64,000 bases of DNA from Mariniblastus fucicola (GTDB lineage: Bacteria; Planctomycetota; Planctomycetia; Pirellulales; Pirellulaceae), in NCBI RefSeq assembly GCF_008087665.1, contig NZ_CP042912.1, positions 2,046,001 through 2,110,000 of the forward strand, written 5' to 3'. Positions within the stretch are counted from its first letter, which is position 1; every line of letters begins with the position of its first letter. Positions 2,421 to 53,625 of this stretch are shown piece after piece. The notes below the pieces were generated by a model that did not search any database, was not told where the DNA came from, and saw nothing but the letters and a program-made list of their open reading frames with translations. A program made the translations under genes and the position numbers.

Positions 2421-3329
2421 TCAACCGTCTCGTCCAACCTGAATCAGCATGTTGCTTTGATCTGGCAAGATGTCGATTGAAGCGTTTGAATTCAAAAGGT
2501 TTTCGACTTCCATCACTTCCAGAACCGTTTCCAGGATCTCCGGATCTTTCTTGGCGATCTCGTTTAGTGCCTCGCCGACGATCTGCGGCCGCGAAGAAGC
2601 GGCTTCGGCCATTTTCTGTGACACTCGAAATGCAGTTTCGGATTTGATCAGTCCGACCCGGTTCTCCCCGTCCTGTTTCATCGCGCTCGTCACCTGGACC
2701 AGTCGCTTCACTACTTTTTCAGTAATGTTGTCGACCATCCCACGATCCGTGAAAGCGACTTTGCGAATGTAAACCGATCCCAAAGAGTAGCCCCACTGTT
2801 CGGAGAGCGGAGACACCGTTGCGCGAACGTTGCGGCTGAGCGAATGACGATCTTCGAGCATCTTTTCCATCTCAAGATTGCTCAGCGTCGAAATCGTGGA
2901 ACTGGTAACGTTCGCCTGAAGTGAACCTTCTGGATTGGCGTTGGTGAACAGGTAGGAAATCGGATCCGAGACGCGCATCTCGTACCAAATGCCGACGCCC
3001 ATCGGCGTTCCCTCTTCCGAGTTCACCATCTGGTTCCGCATATAATGCTGACGCAGCGATGTCCCGACCACGTACTTCTTGCCGAAGAAAGGAATCAGCA
3101 ACGCCTTGGGGCCGAACTTGGTCAGCGGAAATTGCAAACCCGGTTCGTCGATCGTGCCGATGACTTTTCCGAACAGCGTGAAGACTTGCGACTGACATTC
3201 GTTGACGCAAGCGTAGAGCCCGAACATGCGAGCCAAGCCAAGGAAAATCGGAATGGCCAGGAGTCCCATGAGGAAACCAGGGATCGCATAAGGCAGCCAG
3301 CCGATGAGTGATTCGATCAATTCTTCCAT
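2421..3329 (-). CDS. SPFH/band-7 membrane protein, HflC-like partner
   Basis: The 302-residue product has an N-terminal membrane segment (about residues 8-35, with a second short hydrophobic part) and then an SPFH (stomatin/prohibitin/flotillin/HflKC) domain; the C-terminal part is Ala/Glu-rich and helical. The ATG at 3329 was chosen over an upstream in-frame GTG at 3350 because an AGGGAGGA ribosome site sits just before it, inside the end of the upstream gene; the gap to that stop is one base. The tight pairing with the next SPFH gene matches the HflK-HflC arrangement, where both subunits form a membrane cage that controls the FtsH protease. FtsH itself is not in the window, so the target is inferred. 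Confidence 0.8.
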   Translation of the reverse strand: MEELIESLIGWLPYAIPGFLMGLLAIPIFLGLARMFGLYACVNECQSQVFTLFGKVIGTIDEPGLQFPLTKFGPKALLIPFFGKKYVVGTSLRQHYMRNQMVNSEEGTPMGVGIWYEMRVSDPISYLFTNANPEGSLQANVTSSTISTLSNLEMEKMLEDRHSLSRNVRATVSPLSEQWGYSLGSVYIRKVAFTDRGMVDNITEKVVKRLVQVTSAMKQDGENRVGLIKSETAFRVSQKMAEAASSRPQIVGEALNEIAKKDPEILETVLEVMEVENLLNSNASIDILPDQSNMLIQVGRDG

Positions 3330-3330
3330 T

Positions 3331-4353
3331 TTAGATTCCTCCCTTTTCACTTGTTCCCGTTGTCTGGATGACGCGTTTGGCCTTGCTGAACAAAGGGATC
3401 CGCAAATTCCTCAGGTAGGCTCGCAAACAATCCGAACCGCCCTCTTTTTTGATTTGAGACAGCGTCTCGGCCAGTTCTTTCAGTGGAGCAACTTCGGCTT
3501 GTGCGTTGTTCGTCGCGATTTCGACAGCTCGTGCGCTCATCGTGATTTGCTGTTCCGAATCCGCGCGAGCGGTACTCAGATCGCCTGCGACCTGGTTGCG
3601 AGTGCTGTTGATCGCCGACAACGCTCGGTCGACTTCGCCCGGCGGATCGATTTCCGTAATCAATGCCGCGTCCAACTCAATTCCGTAGCGACCGGTCGTC
3701 GATCGACATTGCTCTTCCATGTACTGATTGAGCAGCGGAAGATTTTTCCGCAGGTCATTGATCGAAACGCCTTCTGATAATTCGACCGCGGAATCAGTTT
3801 CCTCAACGACAGCATCTGCGTCCGATGGTTCTGCATCCGAAAGCAGAGCCTGGCCTCGCGGATCGACGAAGTTTGCGACACGTTCCCGCAAAACTGAAAC
3901 GAAGTAGCCCATCACGTGCTCCAGCGGACTCGCGACGCCGAACAGATAGGGATAAAGATTGCTTTCGCTGACTCGATAGCGAAGCTGACCATTGATTCCC
4001 GTGGTCAAGTTGTCTTTGGTGACCGCTTCGATGGTGTCCTGGGCCTTCGATGGATCCCACGACAAGTCAACGGCTTGAGTCGCGACGCTGACTTTCCGCA
4101 CGCGCTGCCACGGCATTTTGAAGTACGGCCCGCCTGGTCCGACGACTCGAACTTGAGGAAACTCATAGCGTTCCTCTTCTTCGCTGGTCATTTCGGATGG
4201 TTTTTGCAACGTTTTTTCGCGAAGCCGCTGAGCCTTGCCAAAGCTTGTGACGACGGCGCGTTGGTCAGGGCTGACGGTATAGAAACCGCCGATCCCTGCG
4301 CGGAAAACGGAGTATGTCATGACTCCCAAAGCAAGGAAAACTAAAAAGACCAT
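3331..4353 (-). CDS. SPFH/band-7 membrane protein, HflK-like partner
   Basis: A 340-residue protein with one N-terminal transmembrane segment (about residues 2-20) and an SPFH domain from the motif GFYTVSPDQRAVVTSFGK onward. This stretch is the usual entry into the HflK/stomatin domain. The C-terminal third is rich in Ala, Glu and Gln and is predicted helical, as in cage-forming family members. It is the first gene of a two-gene unit; its stop codon is one base from the start of the second SPFH gene, so both are almost certainly co-translated. The likely role is membrane protein quality control or membrane organisation. Confidence 0.8.
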   Translation of the reverse strand: MVFLVFLALGVMTYSVFRAGIGGFYTVSPDQRAVVTSFGKAQRLREKTLQKPSEMTSEEEERYEFPQVRVVGPGGPYFKMPWQRVRKVSVATQAVDLSWDPSKAQDTIEAVTKDNLTTGINGQLRYRVSESNLYPYLFGVASPLEHVMGYFVSVLRERVANFVDPRGQALLSDAEPSDADAVVEETDSAVELSEGVSINDLRKNLPLLNQYMEEQCRSTTGRYGIELDAALITEIDPPGEVDRALSAINSTRNQVAGDLSTARADSEQQITMSARAVEIATNNAQAEVAPLKELAETLSQIKKEGGSDCLRAYLRNLRIPLFSKAKRVIQTTGTSEKGGI

Positions 4354-36390: not shown

Positions 36391-36415
36391 ACACAGGCTG
36401 GAAGCCAACGCCGCC
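36391..36415. repeat. Dispersed palindromic repeat copy, eroded
   Basis: CACAGGCTGGAAGCC followed by a changed right end (AACGCCGCC) matches the copy at 50388-50417. It lies just upstream of the flavoprotein GTG start. Its presence argues that this stretch is intergenic, not coding. Confidence 0.6.
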
Positions 36416-41640: not shown

Positions 41641-41939
41641 CCACGATTGGGCTTCTCCCAAAGACGAGCTGATCGTCTCTGACCTTGAGCAAGTCCTTCC
41701 GTTTTCGTTCATGACGTCGTGTAACTTCGCCTGCGCCAAAACTGGCACAGCCGGATAGCCAAGCGTGCTGCGTAAGTCACCCTGGTAAGACAGCCAGTAA
41801 GCCTGCAAAATTCGGGAAATCGAACTCCACACGCGGCAACGAAGGACGGGCATTTTTCTGGCAGTCAGTTATTATTGCTATATTGGTTGACTCTCTTCAA
41901 ACCGAGAGGAAGCACACTATTCTCCTGAGAACGAACACC

Positions 41940-44750
41940 ATGACTGACTTTTTTCGCGCCTCGACCTTGATGATGTCTCTTGCATTGTTCAGCGTAGCAA
42001 TTTGTTGCACCGAACAATCGTCCTTGGCTGCCTCGCCACAACTTGATGGTGAACATGGAGAGGATGGCGTTTCTGGCGATCCCGGAACCGACGGAGAAGA
42101 CGGCACTGATGGATCGGACATCGTCGAATCGGCCACCGATGAGATTGGCTTCAGTGTGTTCGGTGCCCGAGGAGGCAATGGTGGAACAGGCGGTGACGGC
42201 ATTGATGGGGACGACGAAGGGTCCTCGGCACAAGGCGGCAATGGTGGTAACGCTGGAAATGGAGGAGATGTTCATGTGAGCCGAAGTGCTCCGGCAGATC
42301 CAGATACTTTTTTCTCAACTGCGGTACGCGGTGGCCATGGCGGTGATGGAGGAGGTGGCGGAATAGGAACCGGCTTTGAGCTTGGAGGTGACGGCGGATC
42401 CGGAGGTCACGGTGGACGCGGAATCATTGACGGTGAAATAGGTGAATACGCATCGTTCTCCGCTCGAGGAGGTGATGGTGGGGACGCAATTGGCGTTGGC
42501 GCTGTCGCTGGTGACGGCGGTCGCTCTTACGTCAAATCTCGATTCCTGTCGAACTTTCGCTATGCCACAATTAATCAGAACGGTGGCCGAGGTGGTGCCG
42601 GGTTTGACGGAGCCGAAGGAGGCCAAGGTGCCGGTTCGACGATTGGATTCAACCCGGACCAATTTGTCTTTGATCCGGCCGGCGGCGGCGGAGGCGGTGA
42701 TCTAAACCTGAATGTCAACATTAGCGGTGGCAGGGGCGGAGACTCATACAACGGCACTGTTGGTCGAGGCGGCACGGCACGTTTGAATCTTGCACCGCTT
42801 GCCGGCGGAGCCTCCTCGCTCGGGTACACTGTCAACGCTTCGATTGTTGCGGGGCAAGGTGGGCGCGGTATCTCTACCGGAAACCAGGACACCGATGGAG
42901 CCACCGGAGCCATTGCGTTGCTCAATACTGACGACCAGCAATTGCGAACCAGCAGTTTTTTCATTCGCGGTGGCAACGGAGGTTCCGCCTTGGGTAGGCA
43001 AAATCAAGGCGATGGTGGTCAAGGTGCTGCGGCAATCGTCAACGGAGCCATCCGAGTCGCCGAGTCCAATCGTTTCGGAAGGCTTTCACTCACGATGTAC
43101 GGAGGAACGGGTGGTCATGCTCAAGGGACAGGCTGGTCCGGAAACGGCGGCAGTGTCATTGCTCCCGACATGGAACTGCACGCCGACGGAGGTGACTACC
43201 TACAAGTTTTCCTCGCTGGTGGTGACGGTGGCTGGGGCAAACGCAATGGGTCGGGCGGTGACGCCATCATCCAGAATCAGAACGCTCAGCTGGAACTGGG
43301 AACTGAGGTCAAATATTTAGGGACCTATGAAGCAACTGCCTTTGGCGGGAACGCAGGGCAGGGTAAGAATGCAGTCAACGCCGCGACGGGCGGAAACGCT
43401 GTCGCTGAACTCAGCCAGACGGGATATTCGGGCATAAACGCCTCTACCGTTGCACAAGGCGGTTTTGGCAATGATGGAGCAAGTGGCAATGCAACTGCGA
43501 AGACGTTTGCTCATTCGCTTTTGGATGACCGATTTGATTTCGACAATTCCGTCACTACAAGTGCGGTCGCTGCCACCCGACGTGGATCGAGAGGCAACTG
43601 GCGCCCAGCTTACGGAACAAATTCTGTCGCCGAATCTACTGCGATCAACGAAAACGAAGGCAGGACCAATGCCGTCGCGTCAGCCTATGGCGGTTGGGGA
43701 TTTCTGCAGGGAGGCGACGCGATTGCCACCGCTTCGTCGCATAGCATGGTCGATGGAAGCGACTCCTTCGCAAACGCCTACACACGTGGTTCCGGCAGCA
43801 CAAACTCAAGTGATGGAAACCTTTCGGAAAGCACTGCCGTTGCGACCTCAGGGTTGCAAGCGTCATCGCAGGCTCTGGCCAACTCGGAACGTATCGGCCA
43901 CAACGTCACGGCAAAATCGTTGGCTACAGCGACAGGCGACCGCATCTACTCCAATTCCTATGCTTCGACGCGGACATCGTCATGGGAACACTACGCTTCT
44001 GTGCGAACCGGATCAACGAGAAGTCTGTCTGACCAGATCGTGACCGTTGATACAGGGAGCCTGGTCCAGTTTCGCAGCTCTGATGCCATCGCTCGACCGG
44101 TCCTTGAGGGCCAGATGACTGCGGCACTACTGGTGAATCCAATCAGCGATCAGGTCGCAGAGTTCTTTGAAGATGAAAGTGATTTCGGCGATGTCTTTCT
44201 CGGATCCGAGGGCTCGGAAGTGATCGGAGTCGGATCCGTTTTCGCATCTGGGGTCGACGAAACACAACTTTTCTCCAACGCACACATTGAGTTGGACCTC
44301 GAGATACAAGAGGAGCAGTCGGGTGGAAGATTTCAGATCGGATTCTTCGGCCTGGACGACGATTTCGGCGGTTTCGAAGAAATATCTGTTTGGGGGACAC
44401 TCAACGGTCGAGAGTTCATCAACGAGGAATGGGAAGGCGAAGACAGCGCAACCGATGCCATGTCGTTCTTTGATGACCTGTTACTTGACGTTGCCGATAC
44501 GCCGCAGAACCTCGAGCACATCGATCTCGATTTTCACCTCAATTTCGTCTCCAACGATGCCACAGACCTGTTTGGTCTTGGGTTTGTCTTCGGCAACGTC
44601 GAGGTAGATGAGCTTGAAACAGGCCTCGCAGTTCGAGCACCGTCTCAACGATTCAGTCTTGGAGGCATCACCGCAGTTCCGGAACCGAGCTCGATTGTCG
44701 TGTTGATGTCGCTTGCCGTTATTGCGGGCTTCAGAAGGCAGCGATCGTAG
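41940..44750 (+). CDS. Glycine-rich secreted protein with PEP-CTERM anchor
   Basis: A 936-residue surface protein. A signal peptide at about 1-31 ends SLAASP. From about 35 to 480 the chain is built of GGxGG-type repeats (GGNGGTGGDG, GGHGGDGGGGG and the like), which resemble PGRS or collagen-like surface proteins. The region 480-700 is Ala/Ser/Thr-rich and 720-905 is acidic. It ends in a PEP-CTERM sorting signal: VPEPSS at 913-918, a hydrophobic helix, and FRRQRS. Exosortase would cleave it and attach it at the surface; no exosortase gene is nearby. ATG 41940 gives the signal peptide directly. It is enclosed by the ATPase gene on one side and the decayed copy of that gene's end on the other. 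Confidence 0.85.
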   Translation: MTDFFRASTLMMSLALFSVAICCTEQSSLAASPQLDGEHGEDGVSGDPGTDGEDGTDGSDIVESATDEIGFSVFGARGGNGGTGGDGIDGDDEGSSAQGGNGGNAGNGGDVHVSRSAPADPDTFFSTAVRGGHGGDGGGGGIGTGFELGGDGGSGGHGGRGIIDGEIGEYASFSARGGDGGDAIGVGAVAGDGGRSYVKSRFLSNFRYATINQNGGRGGAGFDGAEGGQGAGSTIGFNPDQFVFDPAGGGGGGDLNLNVNISGGRGGDSYNGTVGRGGTARLNLAPLAGGASSLGYTVNASIVAGQGGRGISTGNQDTDGATGAIALLNTDDQQLRTSSFFIRGGNGGSALGRQNQGDGGQGAAAIVNGAIRVAESNRFGRLSLTMYGGTGGHAQGTGWSGNGGSVIAPDMELHADGGDYLQVFLAGGDGGWGKRNGSGGDAIIQNQNAQLELGTEVKYLGTYEATAFGGNAGQGKNAVNAATGGNAVAELSQTGYSGINASTVAQGGFGNDGASGNATAKTFAHSLLDDRFDFDNSVTTSAVAATRRGSRGNWRPAYGTNSVAESTAINENEGRTNAVASAYGGWGFLQGGDAIATASSHSMVDGSDSFANAYTRGSGSTNSSDGNLSESTAVATSGLQASSQALANSERIGHNVTAKSLATATGDRIYSNSYASTRTSSWEHYASVRTGSTRSLSDQIVTVDTGSLVQFRSSDAIARPVLEGQMTAALLVNPISDQVAEFFEDESDFGDVFLGSEGSEVIGVGSVFASGVDETQLFSNAHIELDLEIQEEQSGGRFQIGFFGLDDDFGGFEEISVWGTLNGREFINEEWEGEDSATDAMSFFDDLLLDVADTPQNLEHIDLDFHLNFVSNDATDLFGLGFVFGNVEVDELETGLAVRAPSQRFSLGGITAVPEPSSIVVLMSLAVIAGFRRQRS

Positions 44751-44773: not shown

Positions 44774-47700
44774 CTACTCGATGTCGCCGGGGTTTTCTTC
44801 TTTGAACTTCTGGATTTTCTCCAGAAGTTCAGAGTAGTTGAGTTCCGTAACACGTGCCGCGTCGCGGATTCCTCTGGCTTCGGGCAGTGCTTCCGCCATG
44901 GCCAGAATCGGATCCATCCAGGTCTGCAGAACGCGAAACTGGTTGCGGATGATGTCAAGGAAGATCGTCGGCACCTTGTTGATGACTTCGACTTCGATCG
45001 GATCGACGCCTTTGTCGTGAACGTTGGCCACGGGGTTCGTGGCCGGCGCAACGACCGCGGATCCCTGAGTCTTGATGCCGTCCTTCATCAGTTTTTTGAT
45101 GCCAGTCAACGTCTTGTTGAACTTCTCAAGCTCGGAAACTGCCGTCGTCATTCGCTCGGCCGATGGGTCAGCCGACGAAGCGGTGATCATCTGATTCATC
45201 CCGGATTCGACGGCTTTCTTGATCGAAATCAGCCCGTCGCTGACGGTCGTCATTTGGGCAATCACGCGGCCCAGTCCATCGTCTTCGCTGGCTCCGGAGA
45301 GCAGCAAATTTCGCTGGAAGGTACGTTTGATATCCTCCCAGCGTTCGAGTTCTTCGCCTTCGAGTTCGCCCATCAGCTCTTTCAGCTTCAACAGGTTCGC
45401 CTGAGCTCCCGTCGTCAAAGTCTGAGCCTGATTGTTGTAGTGCGAACGGATCAGCGTCAGCAATTCCTCGTCGTTCATCACCGGGCGGATCTGTTCGGCG
45501 ATCTTGTTCATGTCGCGATACGAACCCTGCAACTTGAATGCCGGCTCGGTTCGATAGTCGTCGGCCTGAGCCGCGGATTCGATGTACAGCTGATTCACGT
45601 GCAGTACGACATCGCGAACTTTCAACAGCTTTCGCATCACCGAAACGAACTCGTTGACTTCCTCGACCGAGTAATTGCCTGCGAGGCTTTCTGAAGGAGC
45701 ACCTTTGCTGGCCGCCATCTTGATCACACGATAAACGTCTTCGCGAGACTTCGAATTCAATCGGGCCAGCGTCGAATTCGATGTCAGGCAGTTCTCCAGA
45801 TAGCTCAGCTCGAACGAATCCGCGTTGCCACCGATGACGTCGCCAAGGTTGTACGTGTCGGCTCGGCTGGCAAGCATGTCCGGGATCTGAAACTTCTCGC
45901 CGCTTTCGGTGTACGGATTTCCCGCCATCACAACGGCAACTTTGCGTCCACGCAAGTCATACGTTTTCGTTTTGCCGCCAAAGACGCCTTCGATTCGACG
46001 CGTCGCATCACAAAGCGAAATGAACTTCTGCAAAAACTCAGGGTTGCAATGCTGGATGTCATCGAGATAGATCATCACGTTATCGCCCATCTCGAGCGCG
46101 AGGTTCAGTTTCTCAACTTCCTCGCGAGCACTCGCATTCGGTGCCTCGTTCGGATCAAGCGAAGTCACCTGGTGACCGATCGCCGGACCGTTGATCTTCA
46201 TGAATGTGATGCCCAGGCGATTGGCAACGTACTCCATCAACGTCGTCTTACCGTATCCCGGTGGCGAAATCAGCAGCAGCAAGCCCATCAAATCGGTTCG
46301 TTTTTCTTCGCCGACGACGCCCATCTGTTTCGCCAGGTTGGCACCGATCATCGGCAAGTACGTGTCGTTGATCAGCTTGTTGCGAACAAAGCTGGTCAGC
46401 ACGCGTGGCTTGAATTCGCCAAGCCGCAATTCCTCGCGGCGTTGGTCAACGATTTCTTTTTTCAGATGCGTGTAAGCTTCGTAGGCCGGAACGGTGTTGG
46501 TCTCGAACTTTGCCAGACGAAGCATGAATTCGTGATAGTCCAACTCGTAGATTTTGGAGTCCACTACGCGATGGTCGCCGAGCATTCCTTCGATCTCGAC
46601 AACGGTCTTCATGTCCAGCATCTTGCGATGATCGGCGTTGCCTTCGATCAGAATCGCCGCTGTTTCTTCAATGTAATCCCGCAAATGTGGATCAGTTTTT
46701 GCGTTTGATTCGACAAAAGCTCCAACCCAACCGCAGGCGATTTCGAAGCGTTCCTGAATCGATAGTGAATCGGACCCAAGTGTTTCGGCAAGTTGATTGC
46801 CGCCTTTTTTCTTGGCGATGAAATCAGTGAAGCGATCACCAAGCTCGGTCGCGGCTTTGCTTGACGGCCACTTGCCTCCGGAAGCCAGCTGCTCGTAGAG
46901 ATATTCGGCCGTCTCGGAAACGGTGGCAACGTTTTCCAGTCTGTGATCGTTCTGAAGTGAAGACAGTTTTTTCGATCGGGCATCGACCGTGTCCACAGCT
47001 GTCGTGTCCACAGGCTGGAAGTCTATGTCACCTTCACCAGCGAGAATCTCAGCCCGTAACTTGTTGATGTAGTCTTCGCGTTCCTTCAAGCCGCCGAACA
47101 ACTTCGTCGCTGCACCAAGACTGGCCAGTTTGTCTTCCCAAGCCTGCTTCACGCCTGGACTCAGTTCGCCCAACTCCAGCCAATACATCGCCGCTTTGGC
47201 GCGTGATTTCGGCGAGTACTTCAACAGCCCCAGATCCAAATGCATTTTCAGCAGCTGGCTCAAAATCAGGTTCGCGTCATGATCGTGGACGCCTTTGATG
47301 TAACCTTCGCTGTAGCGGGGTGCCATGAACTGGCTGACCGTTTCAAGGCGTTTTTCATCGTCCGCCTTGAACAGTTTCTTCAAATCAAGATCTGGTGAGC
47401 GGAGCATCTGATAGGCCAAATACTCGGCGCGATACACGTCGCGATTTTCGCTGACCACCGTCTGATCCCAAACCGGTTTGGTCGCGTTGAGCTCGGGTGA
47501 GGTCGCTGTCTCGAAATAGTTCGTGCCGCTCAAGTGGAAGTGCATGTCGCCGTCTTTGATGACGGTCGTCAGATCCAATGGCTGCACGTTGACGGAGAAC
47601 TTGTGCGTGCCAAACTGAATGATGTTCTGGCCATCGACGTACAGCTCATTTTTGTCACGCAGTTGGCGAATCGTGTCTTCGCGAACCGTTTTTAACCGGC

Positions 47701-50185
47701 TCTGAATGTCGTCGACTTTTACTGACTCTTCAAGTTCCTCAAGCTCGGACACGATGTCCCGAACTTTGTCGATCATCAGATCAGAGGAGAAATAGCTGTT
47801 GATTTCGTCGACCGAATCGAAATTGGCAACACGATTGCGGATGCCTTTCAAAATTCGATCTGCAGCCGCCATCAGCGCGGTCGCGCGGCGATTACGGGCT
47901 TCAACGAGTTGCAATTTCTTCGTATCGAAAGCCGCGTAGATCTCTTCGCGTTTCTCGGCGAGCTGTACAACAAATTCATCGAACTCGGCAAATCGACCTT
48001 CGATCTCTTCGACCTGAACCATCATCTTGGTCAGATATTCGTCGCACTTTTCCGGTGTGTCGCAAACGTCCAAATAGTTGACGACCGCCTGGCTGACGAG
48101 TTTGATTTGCGAATTGAATTCGGCTTTGCCTTCTACCGAAAACAGCTCCTGCGATTTCTTCTTGATCGAAGCCCGCGTCGAATTCAGGCTGGAATAGATC
48201 GCCGAAATGTTGTCGATGATTCGCGTGCGCTGCGTCGGATCATCGATCTTCAAGTTGCTGACAATCTCGATCAACATCTCCAGTTCGTTGCCGACCTGAA
48301 CGATGGCCTCGTCCAGAACTTTGGCTTCAACACCGGTTTTCAGTTCGTCGATCGAGTCGTTTTGTTCTGCCACTCGCTGCTGGTACGGAGCCAACGCCGC
48401 ATCATCAAGCAAAAACTCAACGCATTTATGCGACAGCCGGTCAGCATTCTCGCTGATCTCGGACTCGAGCGATTCAACGGCCGCGAGGTCAACGTATTTC
48501 AACTCCTTGAGCGAAATCACCTGCCCGCGGACCGTGCGGAGGCTTGACAGTGCTTGTACGAAGCGGTCGATGTTATCGAATCGGCCAGACGTTGCGTTGC
48601 GAACGACTTCCTTGGCTGCTTTCGCCGTTTCTTTGTACTGTTTCGCGGTATTGCTGCGGACCCGGACGACTTTCTCGAACTCGTCCACCGCTGCCGTGGC
48701 AGCTTCGCGGATCGCTTCAACGGGCTCGGCCAGATTGAAAGTCTGCTCGTCGCTCAGCCAGAAATTTGAATCAAGGATGTCCGACGAACGCTTGACGATA
48801 TCGACGTACAGATTCGCGTAGGAATCCTCCTGGTCGATCAGCGTCATAATCTCGTGCGCTTCGGCCATCGCCCGCACGATCTCCTTGTTGCCGATCTTGA
48901 AGATGTAAGAATCCGTTTGCTCGCTCGACGCAGATTCGTCAGCCACAAATGGAGTCTGCCAAATTTGAATCGCGTGATGCTTCTGCGGTTCTTCGTCGGC
49001 TTTGAAGTAGATCAAATGGCCGTTGTCGAAAATCGAAAAACCGTTGCACAGGATCGGCGTGTCGACTCGCTGTTCGATCACGTTGTACATCAGCAACGCA
49101 TAGTCGCCGGTGCTCTGGTTGTAGAACGCGTAGAGATAATCCTCGCCGTTGGGAGAAGCAATGCGGCGCTCGAAAGCCAGATTCGTGAGCCCGTTGTCGA
49201 AGATTTTGCTCTGGCCGGTTTGCAGATAGTAGCCGTTTGCGAAAATCAGGCCGTGGTCTTCCGGGAGGAAGATGCAGGATTCGGCAATCGAGTCCAGTCG
49301 CTGGGCGGTTTGTGTTTTCTCGTTGTAGATGACGTATCGAAATTGTTCTTCCTTGAACGGCTTGATCTTCATCAAAATGATGTTGCCCACGATCGCATAG
49401 AAGATTTCTGCGTCGTCAAGCGTCTGGTCAGGATCGTCAACGGGCTCGGCATAGATGCCTGACCCATCTTCCGTGTTGTCTTCGATCTTGACCGTCAGGT
49501 CGCCGCCGACAGTTTCGATGTAAACGCGGTCTTCGATCGAGATGTGCGGGTGCAGTCCGCCACGATGGAACTCACGCGTCGTACGCTTCCATTTAAATTC
49601 GTGTTGCGGCGGATATTTGACTTCGTGATCGCTGCGATTGTCGATGTACTTCAGCTTGTCGCCCTGCATCAGAAACTTGAAAGTCTTGATGTCAGTCAGC
49701 GATTTTCCGGTTCGAAAAACCAGATAGAGGTACGGCCCGGAGACGTGAAATTTCGCGAATCGGGTGTCTTTGTAGTATTTGTACAGCGCGTGGAAGTCAA
49801 CGCCGAACTGTTTATCGCTGAGCAGGTCGAGCGATTCTTCGTGGAAGCTTCCGTCTTCGAAGCGGTAGACCGAGAACACGTCCGGAAGTTCCGTGACGGA
49901 TTTCAGGCCCATGTGAACGTTGTAGCCGAAGAGAAATTTGTCTCCGATCGGCACGATGTCTCGAGCCGTGCAATTGTGCTCGGTCGTGATTCGTTGTTTC
50001 GAAACCAGCTCGGTTGGGATCGCTCCGAAAACGTTACGCCGTTCGTTGTTGAGTTTTTGCAGACGTGCATCCAGTTCGGCAGAATGGGACTTCAACCGGT
50101 TTTGGATGATCTCGTACGTGCCGCGCTCGAGCGTTGGCTCGTTCGGATCGGATTGCGAATCAGGTTGTGTTTCTGTTGGTGGCAT
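44774..50185 (-). CDS. Giant AAA+ ATPase of the DUF3686 'DNA repair ATPase' type
   Basis: A 1803-residue protein. The N-terminal half (about 50-450) is beta-rich with repeated YLVF, YFKAD and YNVIEQR-type strands, consistent with the DUF3686 domain. Residues 450-900 are helical and likely coiled coil. The C-terminal AAA+ module has Walker A SPPGYGKTT (K1313), Walker B MIYLDDIQH (D1375, D1376) and a sensor-1 Asn in VVMAGNPY, close to MoxR-type ATPases. Further helices reach the acidic end. The start ATG lies inside a dispersed repeat and no ribosome site is evident. Upstream, on the same strand, are YqiK- and YqiJ-like genes. The 'DNA repair' label is a database name; the true role is unknown. 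Confidence 0.88.
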   Translation of the reverse strand: MPPTETQPDSQSDPNEPTLERGTYEIIQNRLKSHSAELDARLQKLNNERRNVFGAIPTELVSKQRITTEHNCTARDIVPIGDKFLFGYNVHMGLKSVTELPDVFSVYRFEDGSFHEESLDLLSDKQFGVDFHALYKYYKDTRFAKFHVSGPYLYLVFRTGKSLTDIKTFKFLMQGDKLKYIDNRSDHEVKYPPQHEFKWKRTTREFHRGGLHPHISIEDRVYIETVGGDLTVKIEDNTEDGSGIYAEPVDDPDQTLDDAEIFYAIVGNIILMKIKPFKEEQFRYVIYNEKTQTAQRLDSIAESCIFLPEDHGLIFANGYYLQTGQSKIFDNGLTNLAFERRIASPNGEDYLYAFYNQSTGDYALLMYNVIEQRVDTPILCNGFSIFDNGHLIYFKADEEPQKHHAIQIWQTPFVADESASSEQTDSYIFKIGNKEIVRAMAEAHEIMTLIDQEDSYANLYVDIVKRSSDILDSNFWLSDEQTFNLAEPVEAIREAATAAVDEFEKVVRVRSNTAKQYKETAKAAKEVVRNATSGRFDNIDRFVQALSSLRTVRGQVISLKELKYVDLAAVESLESEISENADRLSHKCVEFLLDDAALAPYQQRVAEQNDSIDELKTGVEAKVLDEAIVQVGNELEMLIEIVSNLKIDDPTQRTRIIDNISAIYSSLNSTRASIKKKSQELFSVEGKAEFNSQIKLVSQAVVNYLDVCDTPEKCDEYLTKMMVQVEEIEGRFAEFDEFVVQLAEKREEIYAAFDTKKLQLVEARNRRATALMAAADRILKGIRNRVANFDSVDEINSYFSSDLMIDKVRDIVSELEELEESVKVDDIQSRLKTVREDTIRQLRDKNELYVDGQNIIQFGTHKFSVNVQPLDLTTVIKDGDMHFHLSGTNYFETATSPELNATKPVWDQTVVSENRDVYRAEYLAYQMLRSPDLDLKKLFKADDEKRLETVSQFMAPRYSEGYIKGVHDHDANLILSQLLKMHLDLGLLKYSPKSRAKAAMYWLELGELSPGVKQAWEDKLASLGAATKLFGGLKEREDYINKLRAEILAGEGDIDFQPVDTTAVDTVDARSKKLSSLQNDHRLENVATVSETAEYLYEQLASGGKWPSSKAATELGDRFTDFIAKKKGGNQLAETLGSDSLSIQERFEIACGWVGAFVESNAKTDPHLRDYIEETAAILIEGNADHRKMLDMKTVVEIEGMLGDHRVVDSKIYELDYHEFMLRLAKFETNTVPAYEAYTHLKKEIVDQRREELRLGEFKPRVLTSFVRNKLINDTYLPMIGANLAKQMGVVGEEKRTDLMGLLLLISPPGYGKTTLMEYVANRLGITFMKINGPAIGHQVTSLDPNEAPNASAREEVEKLNLALEMGDNVMIYLDDIQHCNPEFLQKFISLCDATRRIEGVFGGKTKTYDLRGRKVAVVMAGNPYTESGEKFQIPDMLASRADTYNLGDVIGGNADSFELSYLENCLTSNSTLARLNSKSREDVYRVIKMAASKGAPSESLAGNYSVEEVNEFVSVMRKLLKVRDVVLHVNQLYIESAAQADDYRTEPAFKLQGSYRDMNKIAEQIRPVMNDEELLTLIRSHYNNQAQTLTTGAQANLLKLKELMGELEGEELERWEDIKRTFQRNLLLSGASEDDGLGRVIAQMTTVSDGLISIKKAVESGMNQMITASSADPSAERMTTAVSELEKFNKTLTGIKKLMKDGIKTQGSAVVAPATNPVANVHDKGVDPIEVEVINKVPTIFLDIIRNQFRVLQTWMDPILAMAEALPEARGIRDAARVTELNYSELLEKIQKFKEENPGDIE
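44804..44830. repeat. Perfect hairpin inside the 3' coding end of the ATPase
   Basis: GAACTTCTGGA (44804-44814) and TCCAGAAGTTC (44820-44830) form an 11-base stem with a TTTTC loop. It codes for ELLEKIQKF. The same hairpin is kept without change at 41514-41540 in the decayed copy. Confidence 0.75.
47007..47035. repeat. Dispersed repeat copy inside the ATPase coding sequence
   Basis: CACAGGCTGGAAGTCTATG followed by TCACCTTC differs from the intergenic copy at 50388-50417 at only two bases over its core. On the coding strand it specifies the stretch around GDIDFQPVD (about residues 1051-1060) and keeps the frame open. It falls in a region between the coiled coil and the AAA+ domain. Confidence 0.65.
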
Positions 50186-50202
50186 AGGCTTTTGGCCTGT
50201 GA
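50178..50202. repeat. Dispersed palindromic repeat carrying the ATPase start codon
   Basis: GGTGGCATAGGCTTTTGGCC followed by TGTGA is the reverse of the copies at 50281-50308 and 50388-50417. The ATPase ATG (complement of CAT at 50183-50185) lies within it. Confidence 0.75.
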
Positions 50203-50280
50203 GCGCGCTGGATGGATGATTGGAAAATTATGAAGGTGGTTGGCGACTGGCCTGTGCCGACGTGCCTTTGTCGACATTCG

Positions 50281-50308
50281 GATCACAGGCAAGCCTATGC
50301 CACCTTGG
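50281..50308. repeat. Dispersed palindromic repeat copy
   Basis: GATCACAGGCAAGCCTATGC followed by CACCTTGG, in the gap upstream of the giant ATPase. It and the copy at 50178 are in opposite directions, so they could pair as a long hairpin. Confidence 0.75.
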
Positions 50309-50349
50309 GTTTTGGCTGAACAGAGGCTTGTTGCCTCTTTGGCGTGAAT

Positions 50350-50375
50350 GCGGCGGCATAGGCCGCCACCACGAG
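50350..50375. repeat. Second dispersed repeat type copy
   Basis: TGCGGCGGCATAGGCCGCC followed by ACCACGA. It matches 21741-21769 outside the short loop. Confidence 0.65.
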
Positions 50376-50387
50376 GTTTTCAGTGAG

Positions 50388-50417
50388 TTCACAGGCTGGA
50401 AGCCTATGCCACCTTTG
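50388..50417. repeat. Dispersed palindromic repeat copy at the 3' side of the flotillin-like gene
   Basis: TTCACAGGCTGGAAGCCTAT followed by GCCACCTTTG ends two bases before the flotillin-like stop codon. It is the fullest copy and serves as reference for the family. AGGCTGGAAGCCT is its hairpin core. Confidence 0.8.
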
Positions 50418-50418
50418 C

Positions 50419-52443
50419 CTACGACTTCACGCTCAGCTTCTTCAGAACTGCACCGGCGTTTTCAGTCGCGACGCCGGCCTTGTTCGCCATGCCCATCATC
50501 GACTGGAGCTGTCCCAGCACGTTGACATCGTTGGTCAAGCCCATCATTTGGCCAAGCAATGCCGCGACGCTGAGATTCTTCAGGTCTTCGCTGCTGATGC
50601 CAAACATGTCGATGTGCTTTTTGATCTCGGATGAAAGCTGAGCCGGATCGCCGTTGAAGAAAGTGTTCTTCACGTCGGTCAAAACCGTGCTCTCACCGAC
50701 CAGGCGATCAACCTGCTTGCCCGCCGTAATCGAGTTCACGATCGAATCGAAGAACTGTCCGTCTCCACCGACGATGTCGATGTTCGCTTCACGCAACGAC
50801 TCGGCAATCATGCCGGCCTGAGCTTCCGCGATTTGACGTTGAGCATCGATGCCCGCCAATTCGATATCTTTCTCTTTCTGGAGTTCCAGTTTGAACTCTT
50901 CGTGCTCGCGACCGACGCTGTCGAACAGCTTCATCGCTTCCGCCTTCTCGGTGATACCGCGAGCGTCGGCGCTGAACTTCAGTTCCGCAACTTTGGCTTC
51001 TGCAGTACCTTCCTTTTCGATCGCATCGGCTTTCGCAAGGATCACATCCGCTTCGGCAAGTCCCGGAGCCGCAGTTTCGGCCTGCAAAGCCTCTGCCAAC
51101 ATTTTCTTCGCGTCGGTTTGCTTTTCCGCAGCCGAACGTTCCGCTTCAGCCGTCACGATGACGGTTTCCGCATCGAGAGTCGCAGCCTGTTTCTTGGCTT
51201 CGGCAGCCTGAACCTGTTGAACCAACTGCTGTTGAGCCAGCTCTTCGGCGGCCGTAACGGCAACCTGTTTCTTACGATCAGCAGCCGCGAATTCGCGAGT
51301 ATCCTTGATCTTTTCTTCTTCTTCCACGACCGCACGTTCAACGATGACTCGTTCGCGGATGACGTCCTGGATGTTCTTCTTCTCGACTTCGACCGCTTTT
51401 TCTTTGTCGATCTGAGCCAGCGTTACGATACGCTCGCGCTCCGTAATCTCAAGGCCACGATCTTTCTCGACGCGTTCTGTTTCCACCGCTTCGGTGCGTT
51501 CTTTCGATTTCGCAGCAACGATCACAGCACGCTTCTTGTTCTCTTCGGCGACCAGAATTTCTTCTTCGGCGCGAATCCGAGCCGTTTCCTGTCGCTGACG
51601 TTCTTCTTCCTGGACGACTTTCGCGTCCGCTGTTTGACGTGCCGTTACTTCAGCGATCTCGCGCTGCTGTTTCTCTTCGGCTTCGACCTGTTGACGTTCG
51701 AGAGCCAGAATGGCTTCGCGAGCTTCAACGTCCTGCTTCTTCAGCGTTTTCTCTTTTTCACGCTGGATGAAGTTCGCACGCGTGATTTCTTCGGCCGTCA
51801 AATCGGTGATCTTCTTGATACCTTCAGCGTCGAGAACGTTGTTGGGATTCAACTTCTCAAGATCCGTTTGCTCAAGGTAGTCAATCGCCGCGTCGTCAAG
51901 CACGTAGCCGTTGAGGTCCGTGCCGATGATACGCAAAATTTGCTCGCGGAACTTTTCGCGAGAGTTGTAAAGCTCAACGAAATCGAACTGTTTACCGACG
52001 GTTTTCAAAGCTTCGGAGAACTTTGGCTCGAACAGAGCACGCAGGGCTGTTTCATCAGACGCACGATCGCAACCGAGGAACTGAGCCACGCGTTCGACGT
52101 CTTCTTTTGTTTTGTTCACGCGAACGAAGAAGCAAACCTTGATGTCGGCTCGCATGTTGTCGCGACAGATCAAACCATCTTCGCCCGAACGATCGATCTC
52201 AATTCGCTTCACCGAGATGTCCATCAATTCGGCTTTGTGGAGAATCGGAATCACCCAGTCGCCTGAGAAGCTCACGTTCGTTCCGCCCATACCGTTTCGC
52301 ACGATCGCAGAACCCTGATTGACTTTGCGATAGTAGCGAAGCATGAACACGAACGCGCCCACGGCGATAAAGAACAGGGCGCCGCCGAGGATCATAAAGA
52401 ACCAACCCATAGGGCTGATCGCGAGTATGGTGCTGTCAATCAT
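50419..52443 (-). CDS. yqiK: YqiK-like flotillin family membrane protein
   Basis: A 674-residue protein with one N-terminal transmembrane segment (about residues 14-38), an SPFH/flotillin domain (about 45-220), and a very long Ala/Glu/Lys-rich coiled coil (about 240-560) with AEAKKQAATLDAE-type repeats, then a small C-terminal domain. Flotillins assemble in membrane microdomains. ATG 52443 has GGGAG upstream, and the 45 extra residues of the longer frame would overlap the preceding gene. It lies 46 bases after a YqiJ-like gene, the same pairing as E. coli yqiJ-yqiK, and 233 bases before the giant ATPase on the same strand. Confidence 0.88.
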   Translation of the reverse strand: MIDSTILAISPMGWFFMILGGALFFIAVGAFVFMLRYYRKVNQGSAIVRNGMGGTNVSFSGDWVIPILHKAELMDISVKRIEIDRSGEDGLICRDNMRADIKVCFFVRVNKTKEDVERVAQFLGCDRASDETALRALFEPKFSEALKTVGKQFDFVELYNSREKFREQILRIIGTDLNGYVLDDAAIDYLEQTDLEKLNPNNVLDAEGIKKITDLTAEEITRANFIQREKEKTLKKQDVEAREAILALERQQVEAEEKQQREIAEVTARQTADAKVVQEEERQRQETARIRAEEEILVAEENKKRAVIVAAKSKERTEAVETERVEKDRGLEITERERIVTLAQIDKEKAVEVEKKNIQDVIRERVIVERAVVEEEEKIKDTREFAAADRKKQVAVTAAEELAQQQLVQQVQAAEAKKQAATLDAETVIVTAEAERSAAEKQTDAKKMLAEALQAETAAPGLAEADVILAKADAIEKEGTAEAKVAELKFSADARGITEKAEAMKLFDSVGREHEEFKLELQKEKDIELAGIDAQRQIAEAQAGMIAESLREANIDIVGGDGQFFDSIVNSITAGKQVDRLVGESTVLTDVKNTFFNGDPAQLSSEIKKHIDMFGISSEDLKNLSVAALLGQMMGLTNDVNVLGQLQSMMGMANKAGVATENAGAVLKKLSVKS

Positions 52444-52489
52444 TAATGAATCTCCCAATTTGAAATCAACCGAAGCTGTATCGTTAAGT

Positions 52490-53140
52490 CTATTTGTCTT
52501 CCCACTTACACAGTTCAACCATGTAAGTGTCATTTTCGTAGTTGTAAGAAAGAATCCTGGCAGCGTCGCCTTTGCCAAGATTAGGTTTGTCAGGCTGCTT
52601 GCGAGCGTTGATGACCAACTCGGGGCCGTCCAACTTTATGCTGACCTGGCCAAATGATTCGGTGACTTCCGAAGTCGTTACCGCTCCGATCATTCCGATC
52701 ATCCTGTCCCGCGTCGTGTCATTTTCTTGCGGCTTAAACCCTTCAGCGAAAGGACCAAGGATCAGGCGAGTCAAAAACAAACAGGCCGCGACGTTGACTG
52801 TGCCAATCAGCAATCCGGCCAACACGTTGCCGCCAGGATTGAGCAAATGGTTTCCGAGAAAGCTTGCCGCCCAGAAAAGCAGAGCGAAAACACTGGCGAC
52901 CAAAACAACTGGCACGTGATTCAAGTGCATCAGCTCGGCAAACGAGCTAAATCCACCTGTGTGAGTATCGAAGTCGCCGTCAACGTCCAGCACATTGAGG
53001 TCCGTATCGAAATCGATGTCGATAGCGTCGACTCCGATGGCTCCAACAATGACCATCATCCAGTACAACAGGCATAGCAACAGCAGGCCTGTTGCCGGCA
53101 GGTTCACCAATTGAAATGTTTCGTTGATAAAGTCGATCAT
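52490..53140 (-). CDS. yqiJ: YqiJ-like membrane protein with C-terminal OB-fold (NfeD-related)
   Basis: The 216-residue protein has hydrophobic segments at about 13-35, 75-95 and 105-130, then a soluble beta-rich domain (about 140-216; GMIGAVTTSEVTESFGQVSI) of the OB-fold type. Such proteins are the usual partners of YqiK/flotillins, as NfeD is of other SPFH proteins, and may tether or regulate them. The start ATG 53140 is chosen because the family starts at the first hydrophobic helix; the longer frame adds ten polar residues. It is the first gene of the leftward three-gene set. Confidence 0.8.
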   Translation of the reverse strand: MIDFINETFQLVNLPATGLLLLCLLYWMMVIVGAIGVDAIDIDFDTDLNVLDVDGDFDTHTGGFSSFAELMHLNHVPVVLVASVFALLFWAASFLGNHLLNPGGNVLAGLLIGTVNVAACLFLTRLILGPFAEGFKPQENDTTRDRMIGMIGAVTTSEVTESFGQVSIKLDGPELVINARKQPDKPNLGKGDAARILSYNYENDTYMVELCKWEDK

Positions 53141-53625
53141 GTTCTTTTCGATCCGTTTGCACTGCGTCATTGGTTGCGCAGTGAGCGAAAATTTAGGTCA
53201 CGGCTAACCCGTGTCTGGCTTCGTGCCAAAAAATCAAGGAACGTTTGGACGCAAGAGAATCGTCACAATCGGAGGATGTGTTAGGATTCCGGACGTCCGG
53301 TTCCGTTCAAGATTCGACCATAGTTCGCGGCCAATACCAAAATCTTGGAAGAATTCGCGACCGGAAAAGCCGCTAGATTGCGAAGGAACGGCAAAATACA
53401 GGCTGCCGGAGGGCTTGGCGTCGCTTCGGGCGGCTAGTGTTGATGGAGAGATCTCGCATCGCGGGTCCAGGCCTTTCGTTTAACGGCAAGCCGTAGGCGA
53501 CTGCGTCATCATGCAGCACCCGTCGCCTGCGGCTTGCCGTTAAACGAAAAAAAGCAGTACCCGGTCGCCTCGGACCCCACCGAGCGACGAAGTTAGTTTT
53601 GAAACCGAAGAAGAACCGAGATTCG
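53141..53625. other. Intergenic region upstream of the yqiJ-like and S4 genes
   Basis: No gene is supported in this 485-base gap. It should contain the divergent promoters of the YqiJ/YqiK/ATPase set and the S4 gene. CACTGCG (53160-53166) pairs with CGCAGTG (53177-53183) close to the yqiJ start. A large inverted repeat at 53474-53549 is listed separately. Confidence 0.5.
53474..53549. repeat. Long inverted repeat (28-base arms)
   Basis: The left arm 53474-53501 starts TTTCGTTTAACGGCAAGCCG and the right arm 53522-53549 is its complement with one mismatch; the loop is 20 bases. AAAA continues after the right arm. It lies 76 bases upstream of the S4 gene. It may be an intergenic repeat element or a strong RNA hairpin; no transposase is linked to it. 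Confidence 0.8.

What the first reader, a model, noticed from the sequence alone, without database searches (positions are those of the whole stretch)
44774..53140. YqiJ-like + YqiK/flotillin + 1803-residue AAA+ ATPase as a candidate membrane-linked system
Three genes in one direction encode an OB-fold membrane protein, a flotillin with a very long coiled coil, and a giant protein with a beta-rich DUF3686 part, coiled coil and MoxR-type AAA+ domain with intact Walker motifs. YqiJ/YqiK pairs are known; addition of the ATPase suggests that a flotillin microdomain is coupled to ATP-driven remodelling. The 'DNA repair' label of the ATPase has no visible support in its sequence (no nuclease or helicase motifs).
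Basis: partly seen in the sequence, partly recalled or inferred. Interest (0 to 1): 0.7.

Follow-up and report, generated by a model that had tools for sequence, protein, structure and literature searches.

The report
Flotillin operon with giant ATPase motor
A planctomycete carries a three-gene membrane operon (a small NfeD-like membrane protein, a flotillin scaffold and a giant propeller-AAA+ ATPase) that stays together across many bacterial phyla; the gene combination was already described in 2024, and its proposed role as an ATP-driven membrane-protein remodeller is plausible but untested.

Summary
In detail: 44774-53140 (minus strand) holds yqiJ-like, yqiK/flotillin and an 1803-aa DUF3686-AAA+ gene. 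Of 294 sampled planctomycete genomes, 39 encode DUF3686, and all 39 have this flotillin directly upstream on the same strand. Conversely, 39 of 41 genomes with this flotillin clade have the ATPase; in the other two the contig ends just after the flotillin. Of 62 loci from GTDB species with enough upstream sequence, 58 have the flotillin and 56 YqiJ in that order. Flanking genes are not conserved. Structure prediction makes DUF3686 a beta-propeller followed by long helices; the AAA+ module is closest in fold to MoxR-class NorQ and CbbQ. The combination is not new: a 2024 PSP survey (PMC11237479) describes this operon, with or without CesT/Tir-PspA. Most likely it is a flotillin-NfeD membrane platform served by an AAA+ remodeller (shown: linkage, predicted folds; inferred: complex, activity). 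The 'DNA repair' name has no sequence support.

The parts
52490..53140 (-). YqiJ/NfeD2-like membrane protein, 216 aa, three hydrophobic segments then a soluble C-terminal part (about aa 147-209)
   Evidence: ORF; YqiJ_N 20.6 bits, cut-off 23; hydropathy; relatives in the same position at 56 of 62 GTDB loci
50419..52443 (-). YqiK-type flotillin, 674 aa: N-terminal membrane segment, SPFH domain, long charged helix region, conserved C-terminal tail
   Evidence: (start), and (Band_7; alignment of 25 relatives)
51901..52326 (-). SPFH/Band_7 domain of the flotillin
   Evidence: 47 bits, 46 bits
44774..50185 (-). 1803-aa DUF3686-AAA+ ATPase
   Evidence: Pfam; relatives
48947..50023 (-). predicted beta-propeller (aa 55-413) within DUF3686
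   Evidence: AlphaFold2 pLDDT 88; VIA-align rows over aa 55-413 are largely WD40 and other propeller proteins, best Z 8.9
47576..48907 (-). long alpha-helical/coiled-coil stretch (about aa 427-870), includes DUF7902 at aa 597-680 (48146-48397)
   Evidence: (helices up to aa 640); aa 641-870 not modelled, inferred
45365..46432 (-). AAA+ module (aa 1252-1607), nearest fold NorQ/CbbQ
   Evidence: model pLDDT 85; (NorQ 9qh4 Z 17.2, rmsd 3.4 over 239 residues)
46244..46264 (-). Walker A PPGYGKT (aa 1308-1314)
   Evidence: invariant
46058..46072 (-). Walker B IYLDD region (aa 1372-1376), Asp in the place of the usual Glu
   Evidence: both Asp invariant
45863..45919 (-). sensor 1 Asn1423 (GNP) to candidate arginine finger Arg1441 (PDMLASR)
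   Evidence: conserved columns; role assigned by position (inference)

Best explanation
The three genes encode one membrane-associated machine. YqiK (flotillin) and its NfeD-type partner YqiJ form an oligomeric platform on the inner membrane that gathers membrane or membrane-near client proteins. The soluble giant ATPase is recruited to this platform through its beta-propeller and long helices, and its C-terminal AAA+ module, probably a hexameric ring, uses ATP to remodel, extract or refold clients or the flotillin assembly itself. Shown here: the genes, their near-obligate linkage, the domain folds (predicted) and conserved ATPase motifs. Inferred: membrane location, physical contact, hexamer formation, the client and the direction of remodelling.
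For: All 39 planctomycete genomes with DUF3686 in a sample of 294 have the flotillin directly upstream on the same strand; 39 of 41 genomes with this flotillin clade have the ATPase, and the two exceptions are contig ends. Fourteen genomes with only distant flotillins lack the ATPase, so the link is to this flotillin clade. 58 of 62 GTDB loci and all 11 plasmid-collection records keep flotillin before ATPase. Flanks are not conserved: at most 6 of 21 planctomycete loci share a flanking family, so the linkage is not shared descent of a whole region. YqiJ and YqiK have membrane segments and the ATPase has none, as expected of a soluble motor docked on a membrane scaffold. Propeller and AAA+ folds. 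S. aureus FloA-NfeD holds and stabilises unfolded proteins in membrane microdomains without ATP (PMC11222466, abstract), which gives an ATPase partner an obvious job.
Against: No direct evidence of a complex, of ATP hydrolysis or of a client. E. coli and Shewanella have yqiJ-yqiK-type pairs described without this ATPase (PMC2636767, PMC1468410), so the pair can work alone. Two of 62 GTDB loci (L097, L109) have the ATPase with no flotillin nearby. The Walker B Asp-Asp could mean weak hydrolysis.
Confidence: 0.55

Rival explanations
1. The ATPase is a Vps4-like disassembler of PspA/ESCRT-III-like polymers; flotillin and YqiJ only anchor PspA to the membrane, and the trio works with PspA encoded in the operon or elsewhere, as PMC11237479 suggests.
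For: 24 of 62 GTDB loci carry PspA just upstream, 23 with a CesT/Tir chaperone; the annotated Hymenobacter plasmid has Tir-PspA-DUF1449-flotillin-ATPase and pQBR103 has YjfI-PspA-...-SPFH-ATPase. 22 of 34 trio-bearing planctomycetes checked have a PspA above the Pfam cut-off somewhere.
Against: 12 of 34, the window's own single-contig genome included, have none above the cut-off; planctomycete neighbourhoods closest to the window have none beside the trio. A divergent PspA could be missed (own genome: 23-bit match, cut-off 33.9, in a 277-aa frame with a membrane segment and coiled coil).
Confidence: 0.25
2. The ATPase is a DNA-repair enzyme, as its database name says, and the flotillin link is incidental or regulatory.
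For: The Pfam description of PF12458; weak RuvB P-loop matches; an HTH plus Peptidase_S24 (LexA-family) regulator lies divergently beside the Bacteroidota operons; loss of a YqiK homologue in Shewanella raised spontaneous resistance and peroxide sensitivity (PMC1468410).
Against: No nuclease, helicase or DNA-binding domain matches above cut-off; RuvB matches are below cut-off and confined to the P-loop; near-obligate linkage to a membrane pair; the S24 domains aligned do not show a conserved catalytic serine; the Shewanella authors read the phenotype as iron and oxidative stress.
Confidence: 0.05
3. The module is a mobile stress or defence cassette (for example against phage or membrane-active toxins) rather than housekeeping.
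For: Patchy distribution: 26 of 60 close relatives and 39 of 294 phylum genomes; copies on plasmid-collection records; flanks differ between genomes.
Against: No PADLOC match for ATPase or flotillin; no relative in the phage records or IMG/VR; no defence genes seen beside it among the window genes scanned.
Confidence: 0.12

Closest known systems
CesT/Tir-PspA + band-7/flotillin + YqiJ + propeller-AAA+ operon and its abbreviated form (PMC11237479, 2024)
   Same: Same three protein types, same gene neighbourhood; that paper notes abbreviated operons with band-7/flotillin, YqiJ/YuaF and in some cases the AAA+ ATPase across bacteria and archaea
   Different: The window copy has no PspA or Tir beside it and no PspA above cut-off in the genome; counts, reciprocal linkage and fold models were produced here
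E. coli YqiJ-YqiK / NfeD2-SPFH2 pairs (PMC2636767)
   Same: NfeD-type protein followed by SPFH2 flotillin in one operon
   Different: No DUF3686 ATPase in the pair described there; DUF3686 not found in the 14 control genomes
S. aureus FloA-NfeD (PMC11222466)
   Same: Flotillin plus NfeD partner on the membrane
   Different: The S. aureus system acts without ATP and no ATPase partner is reported in its abstract
NorQ/NorD and CbbQ/CbbO (MoxR AAA+ remodellers)
   Same: Nearest solved folds to the AAA+ module (Z 15.5-17.2)
   Different: No VWA domain seen in the trio, no helix-2-insert hairpin in the model, AAA+ fused to a propeller and coiled coil
HflKC-FtsH and PspA/ESCRT-III-Vps4
   Same: Membrane scaffold or polymer paired with an AAA+ machine (established knowledge)
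   Different: No protease domain in this ATPase; client unknown

Membership tests
Flotillin/YqiK (SPFH2) | SPFH/Band_7 domain | tested here: met
   Band_7 46-47 bits over a 23.6-bit cut-off
Flotillin/YqiK (SPFH2) | N-terminal membrane segment and long coiled coil after the SPFH domain | tested here: met
   hydrophobic aa 5-38; aa 201-550 rich in A/E/K/Q/R with almost no G/P; by composition, no coiled-coil program was run
Flotillin/YqiK (SPFH2) | NfeD2/YqiJ gene in the same operon | tested here: met
   YqiJ-like gene 46 bp upstream; kept at 56 of 62 GTDB loci
YqiJ/NfeD2 | YqiJ_N membrane domain | tested here: inconclusive
   20.6 bits, below the 23-bit cut-off; three hydrophobic segments
YqiJ/NfeD2 | C-terminal OB-fold/NfeD beta-barrel | tested here: inconclusive
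   profile matches YuaF 2k14 at E 0.52 only; no structure predicted
DUF3686 ATPases (PF12458) | DUF3686 domain above the gathering score | tested here: met
   628 bits, cut-off 25
AAA+ ATPases | Walker A, Walker B, sensor 1 | tested here: met
   PPGYGKT, LDD and GN conserved; Walker B carries Asp for Glu
MoxR-class AAA+ | fold closest to MoxR-class ATPases | tested here: met
   top ten VIA-align rows are NorQ/CbbQ, Z 15.5-17.2; next families about 14
MoxR-class AAA+ | helix-2-insert hairpin | tested here: inconclusive
   no strands between model residues 464 and 500 at high pLDDT; model only
MoxR-class AAA+ | VWA-domain partner gene nearby | tested here: inconclusive
   no VWA domain in the trio or the neighbouring genes scanned; the genome was not searched
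PSP (PspA) system | PspA gene in the locus or genome | tested here: inconclusive
   no PspA beside the trio; best match in own genome 23 bits, cut-off 33.9
DNA-repair ATPase | nuclease, helicase or DNA-binding domain | tested here: not met
   no such Pfam or NCBIfam match above cut-off

The most novel reading that the evidence does not exclude
A PspA-independent bacterial membrane protein-quality machine in which a flotillin-NfeD platform captures clients and a dedicated propeller-bearing MoxR-like AAA+ motor of a new subclass (no helix-2 insert, Asp-Asp Walker B, no VWA partner) unfolds or refolds them.
Probability: 0.25. Interest if true: 0.65.

Novelty: new member of a known kind. Interest (0 to 1): 0.38.

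Why it matters
What bacterial flotillins do is an open question, and YqiK mutants have given weak or pleiotropic phenotypes. A flotillin clade that, in planctomycetes, is found with a dedicated AAA+ ATPase wherever the contig allows the check gives a concrete, testable partner: ask what the ATPase pulls on. It also shows that the widely copied name 'DNA repair ATPase' for DUF3686 proteins probably misleads.

Tried and rejected
Chance neighbourhood: rejected by 39 of 39 adjacency, reciprocal co-occurrence and unconserved flanks. Phage or viral origin: no relatives in phage records or IMG/VR. Known defence system: no PADLOC match for ATPase or flotillin; one weak 2TM-effector hit for YqiJ at E 0.007 judged as chance. 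Promoters and terminators: number of sites at the level of shuffles, so no operon boundary could be drawn. No solved relative of DUF3686 by sequence. Full-length flotillin against Pfam gave nothing; cutting out the SPFH part solved that. Literature: no held paper mentions 'DUF3686', or 'DNA repair ATPase' with flotillin.

Full report
What is there. On the minus strand of the window lie, in transcription order, a YqiJ-like gene (52490-53140), a YqiK-type flotillin gene (50419-52443) and an ATPase gene of 1803 codons (44774-50185). The genes before and after run the other way (S4-domain gene at 53599 plus; PEP-CTERM-type gene 41883-44750 plus), so the three stand alone as a directon. YqiJ has three hydrophobic segments, the flotillin one at its start, the ATPase none. 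The flotillin has an SPFH domain and a long charged, helix-forming stretch with almost no Gly or Pro. The ATPase has DUF3686 (628 bits), DUF7902 and an AAA domain.

Is the linkage real. I searched 294 planctomycete genomes for DUF3686: 39 have it. I then searched the same genomes with a profile of 25 flotillins from such loci. In all 39 the flotillin lies directly upstream of DUF3686, on the same contig and strand, with 123 to 1576 bp between the two matches. Going the other way, 41 genomes have a flotillin of this clade (over 600 bits). Thirty-nine have the ATPase; in the two others (G279, G310) the contig ends 54 and 263 bp after the flotillin match. Fourteen more genomes have only distant flotillins (at most 241 bits) and no ATPase. 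So in this phylum sample the clade and the ATPase go together in every testable case.

Outside the phylum. A GTDB scan gave at least 550 relatives, of which the best 80 were kept, so they are biased to close ones. They come from Planctomycetota, Bacteroidota, Verrucomicrobiota, Desulfobacterota, Kiritimatiellota, Lentisphaerota, Chlorobi, Bacillota (Orenia) and others. Of 62 with at least 3.5 kb upstream, 58 have the flotillin within 1.5 kb and 56 have YqiJ, same strand. Of the other four, one has the flotillin at 1.6 kb (L126), one has it divergent (L145), and two have none near (L097, L109). Eleven plasmid-collection records, from Pseudomonas, Proteus, Vibrio, Photobacterium, Halomonas, Streptomyces, Nonomuraea, Deinococcus and Hymenobacter, all have the flotillin just upstream of the ATPase (some of these records are whole-replicon size, so 'plasmid' is the collection's word). 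Flanking genes around planctomycete trios are not conserved, so the trio itself is the unit held together.

Prior description. [quoted passage not shown] The window's trio is the abbreviated form. That paper does not use the name DUF3686, so the identity of the ATPase rests on its domain layout and operon context.

Structure. AlphaFold2 with 41 sequences gave residues 1-640 at pLDDT 88 and 870-1660 at pLDDT 85. That Z is only moderate and the blade number was not determined. The second model's residues 383-738 (protein 1252-1607) are closest to NorQ and CbbQ, MoxR-class ATPases (Z 15.5-17.2, rmsd 3.4-4.2 over 229-253 residues), ahead of dynein and midasin (about 14) and ClpB (about 13). The model shows a pre-sensor-1 hairpin (strands 528-533, 536-541) but no hairpin in helix 2. 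Walker A and sensor 1 are conserved; Walker B reads LDD. No nuclease, protease or helicase domain was found above cut-off. The database phrase 'involved in DNA repair' therefore has no support in the sequence, though absence of motifs is not disproof.

PspA. The 2024 paper suggests that abbreviated operons may act with PspA encoded elsewhere. I tested 34 trio-bearing planctomycetes: 22 have a PspA above the Pfam cut-off, 12 do not, among them the single-contig genomes G000 (own), G033 and G042 (trio membership). The own genome's best match is 23 bits, below the 33.9 cut-off, in a 277-residue frame with a membrane segment and coiled coil. So PspA is not a necessary partner unless it is too diverged for the model.

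Mechanism. The best-supported reading is a flotillin-NfeD platform with a docked AAA+ remodeller. FloA-NfeD of S. aureus holds unfolded proteins at the membrane without ATP (PMC11222466, abstract); here an ATPase would add release, unfolding or turnover of the platform. The linkage, membrane segments, folds and motifs are shown or predicted; the contact, the ring, the client and the direction of work are inference. The main rival is a Vps4-like action on PspA polymers; DNA repair and defence are weaker.

Verdict. A real, strongly conserved module of a kind already described, with a still untested function. Interest is moderate: it names a concrete partner for a class of flotillins whose role is unknown.

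Noticed in passing
L076:3577-4362 (minus) and 25 other loci, mostly Bacteroidota: An HTH_3 plus Peptidase_S24 (LexA-family) regulator lies divergently upstream of the Tir-PspA-YqiJ-YqiK-ATPase operon in 25 of 26 loci that carry it; its S24 part lacks a conserved catalytic serine. The terms S24, LexA and XRE do not occur in PMC11237479.
   Followed up: partly
window 50178-50415: The 233-bp gap between flotillin and ATPase genes holds repeats of about 23 bp (GTGGCATAGGCTTCCAGCCTGTG) in both orientations; further copies at 36392 and at 47009, inside the ATPase gene. One copy covers the ATPase start codon, so the start is not certain.
   Followed up: partly
window 2697-4278: Two further SPFH/Band_7 genes in tandem on the minus strand, 48 and 58 bits; seven SPFH matches in the genome.
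   Followed up: no
L167 (own genome, C1:3343017-3343658): A 277-residue frame with an N-terminal membrane segment and coiled coil, weakly like PspA/IM30 (23 bits): a possible divergent ESCRT-III-like protein.
   Followed up: partly
L097: A Desulfobacteraceae DUF3686 ATPase without flotillin, downstream of an NTPase-like and a TPR-like gene and with a C-terminal repeat-like extension (names by eye from the translation): an exception to the linkage.
   Followed up: no
window 41883-44750: A Gly-rich repetitive protein of 955 aa with a PEP-CTERM sorting signal, convergent with the ATPase gene.
   Followed up: no
G201 contig 89, 9503-19791: A planctomycete with three PspA-like genes on the same contig around the trio: a phylum case of the long operon form.
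   Followed up: no
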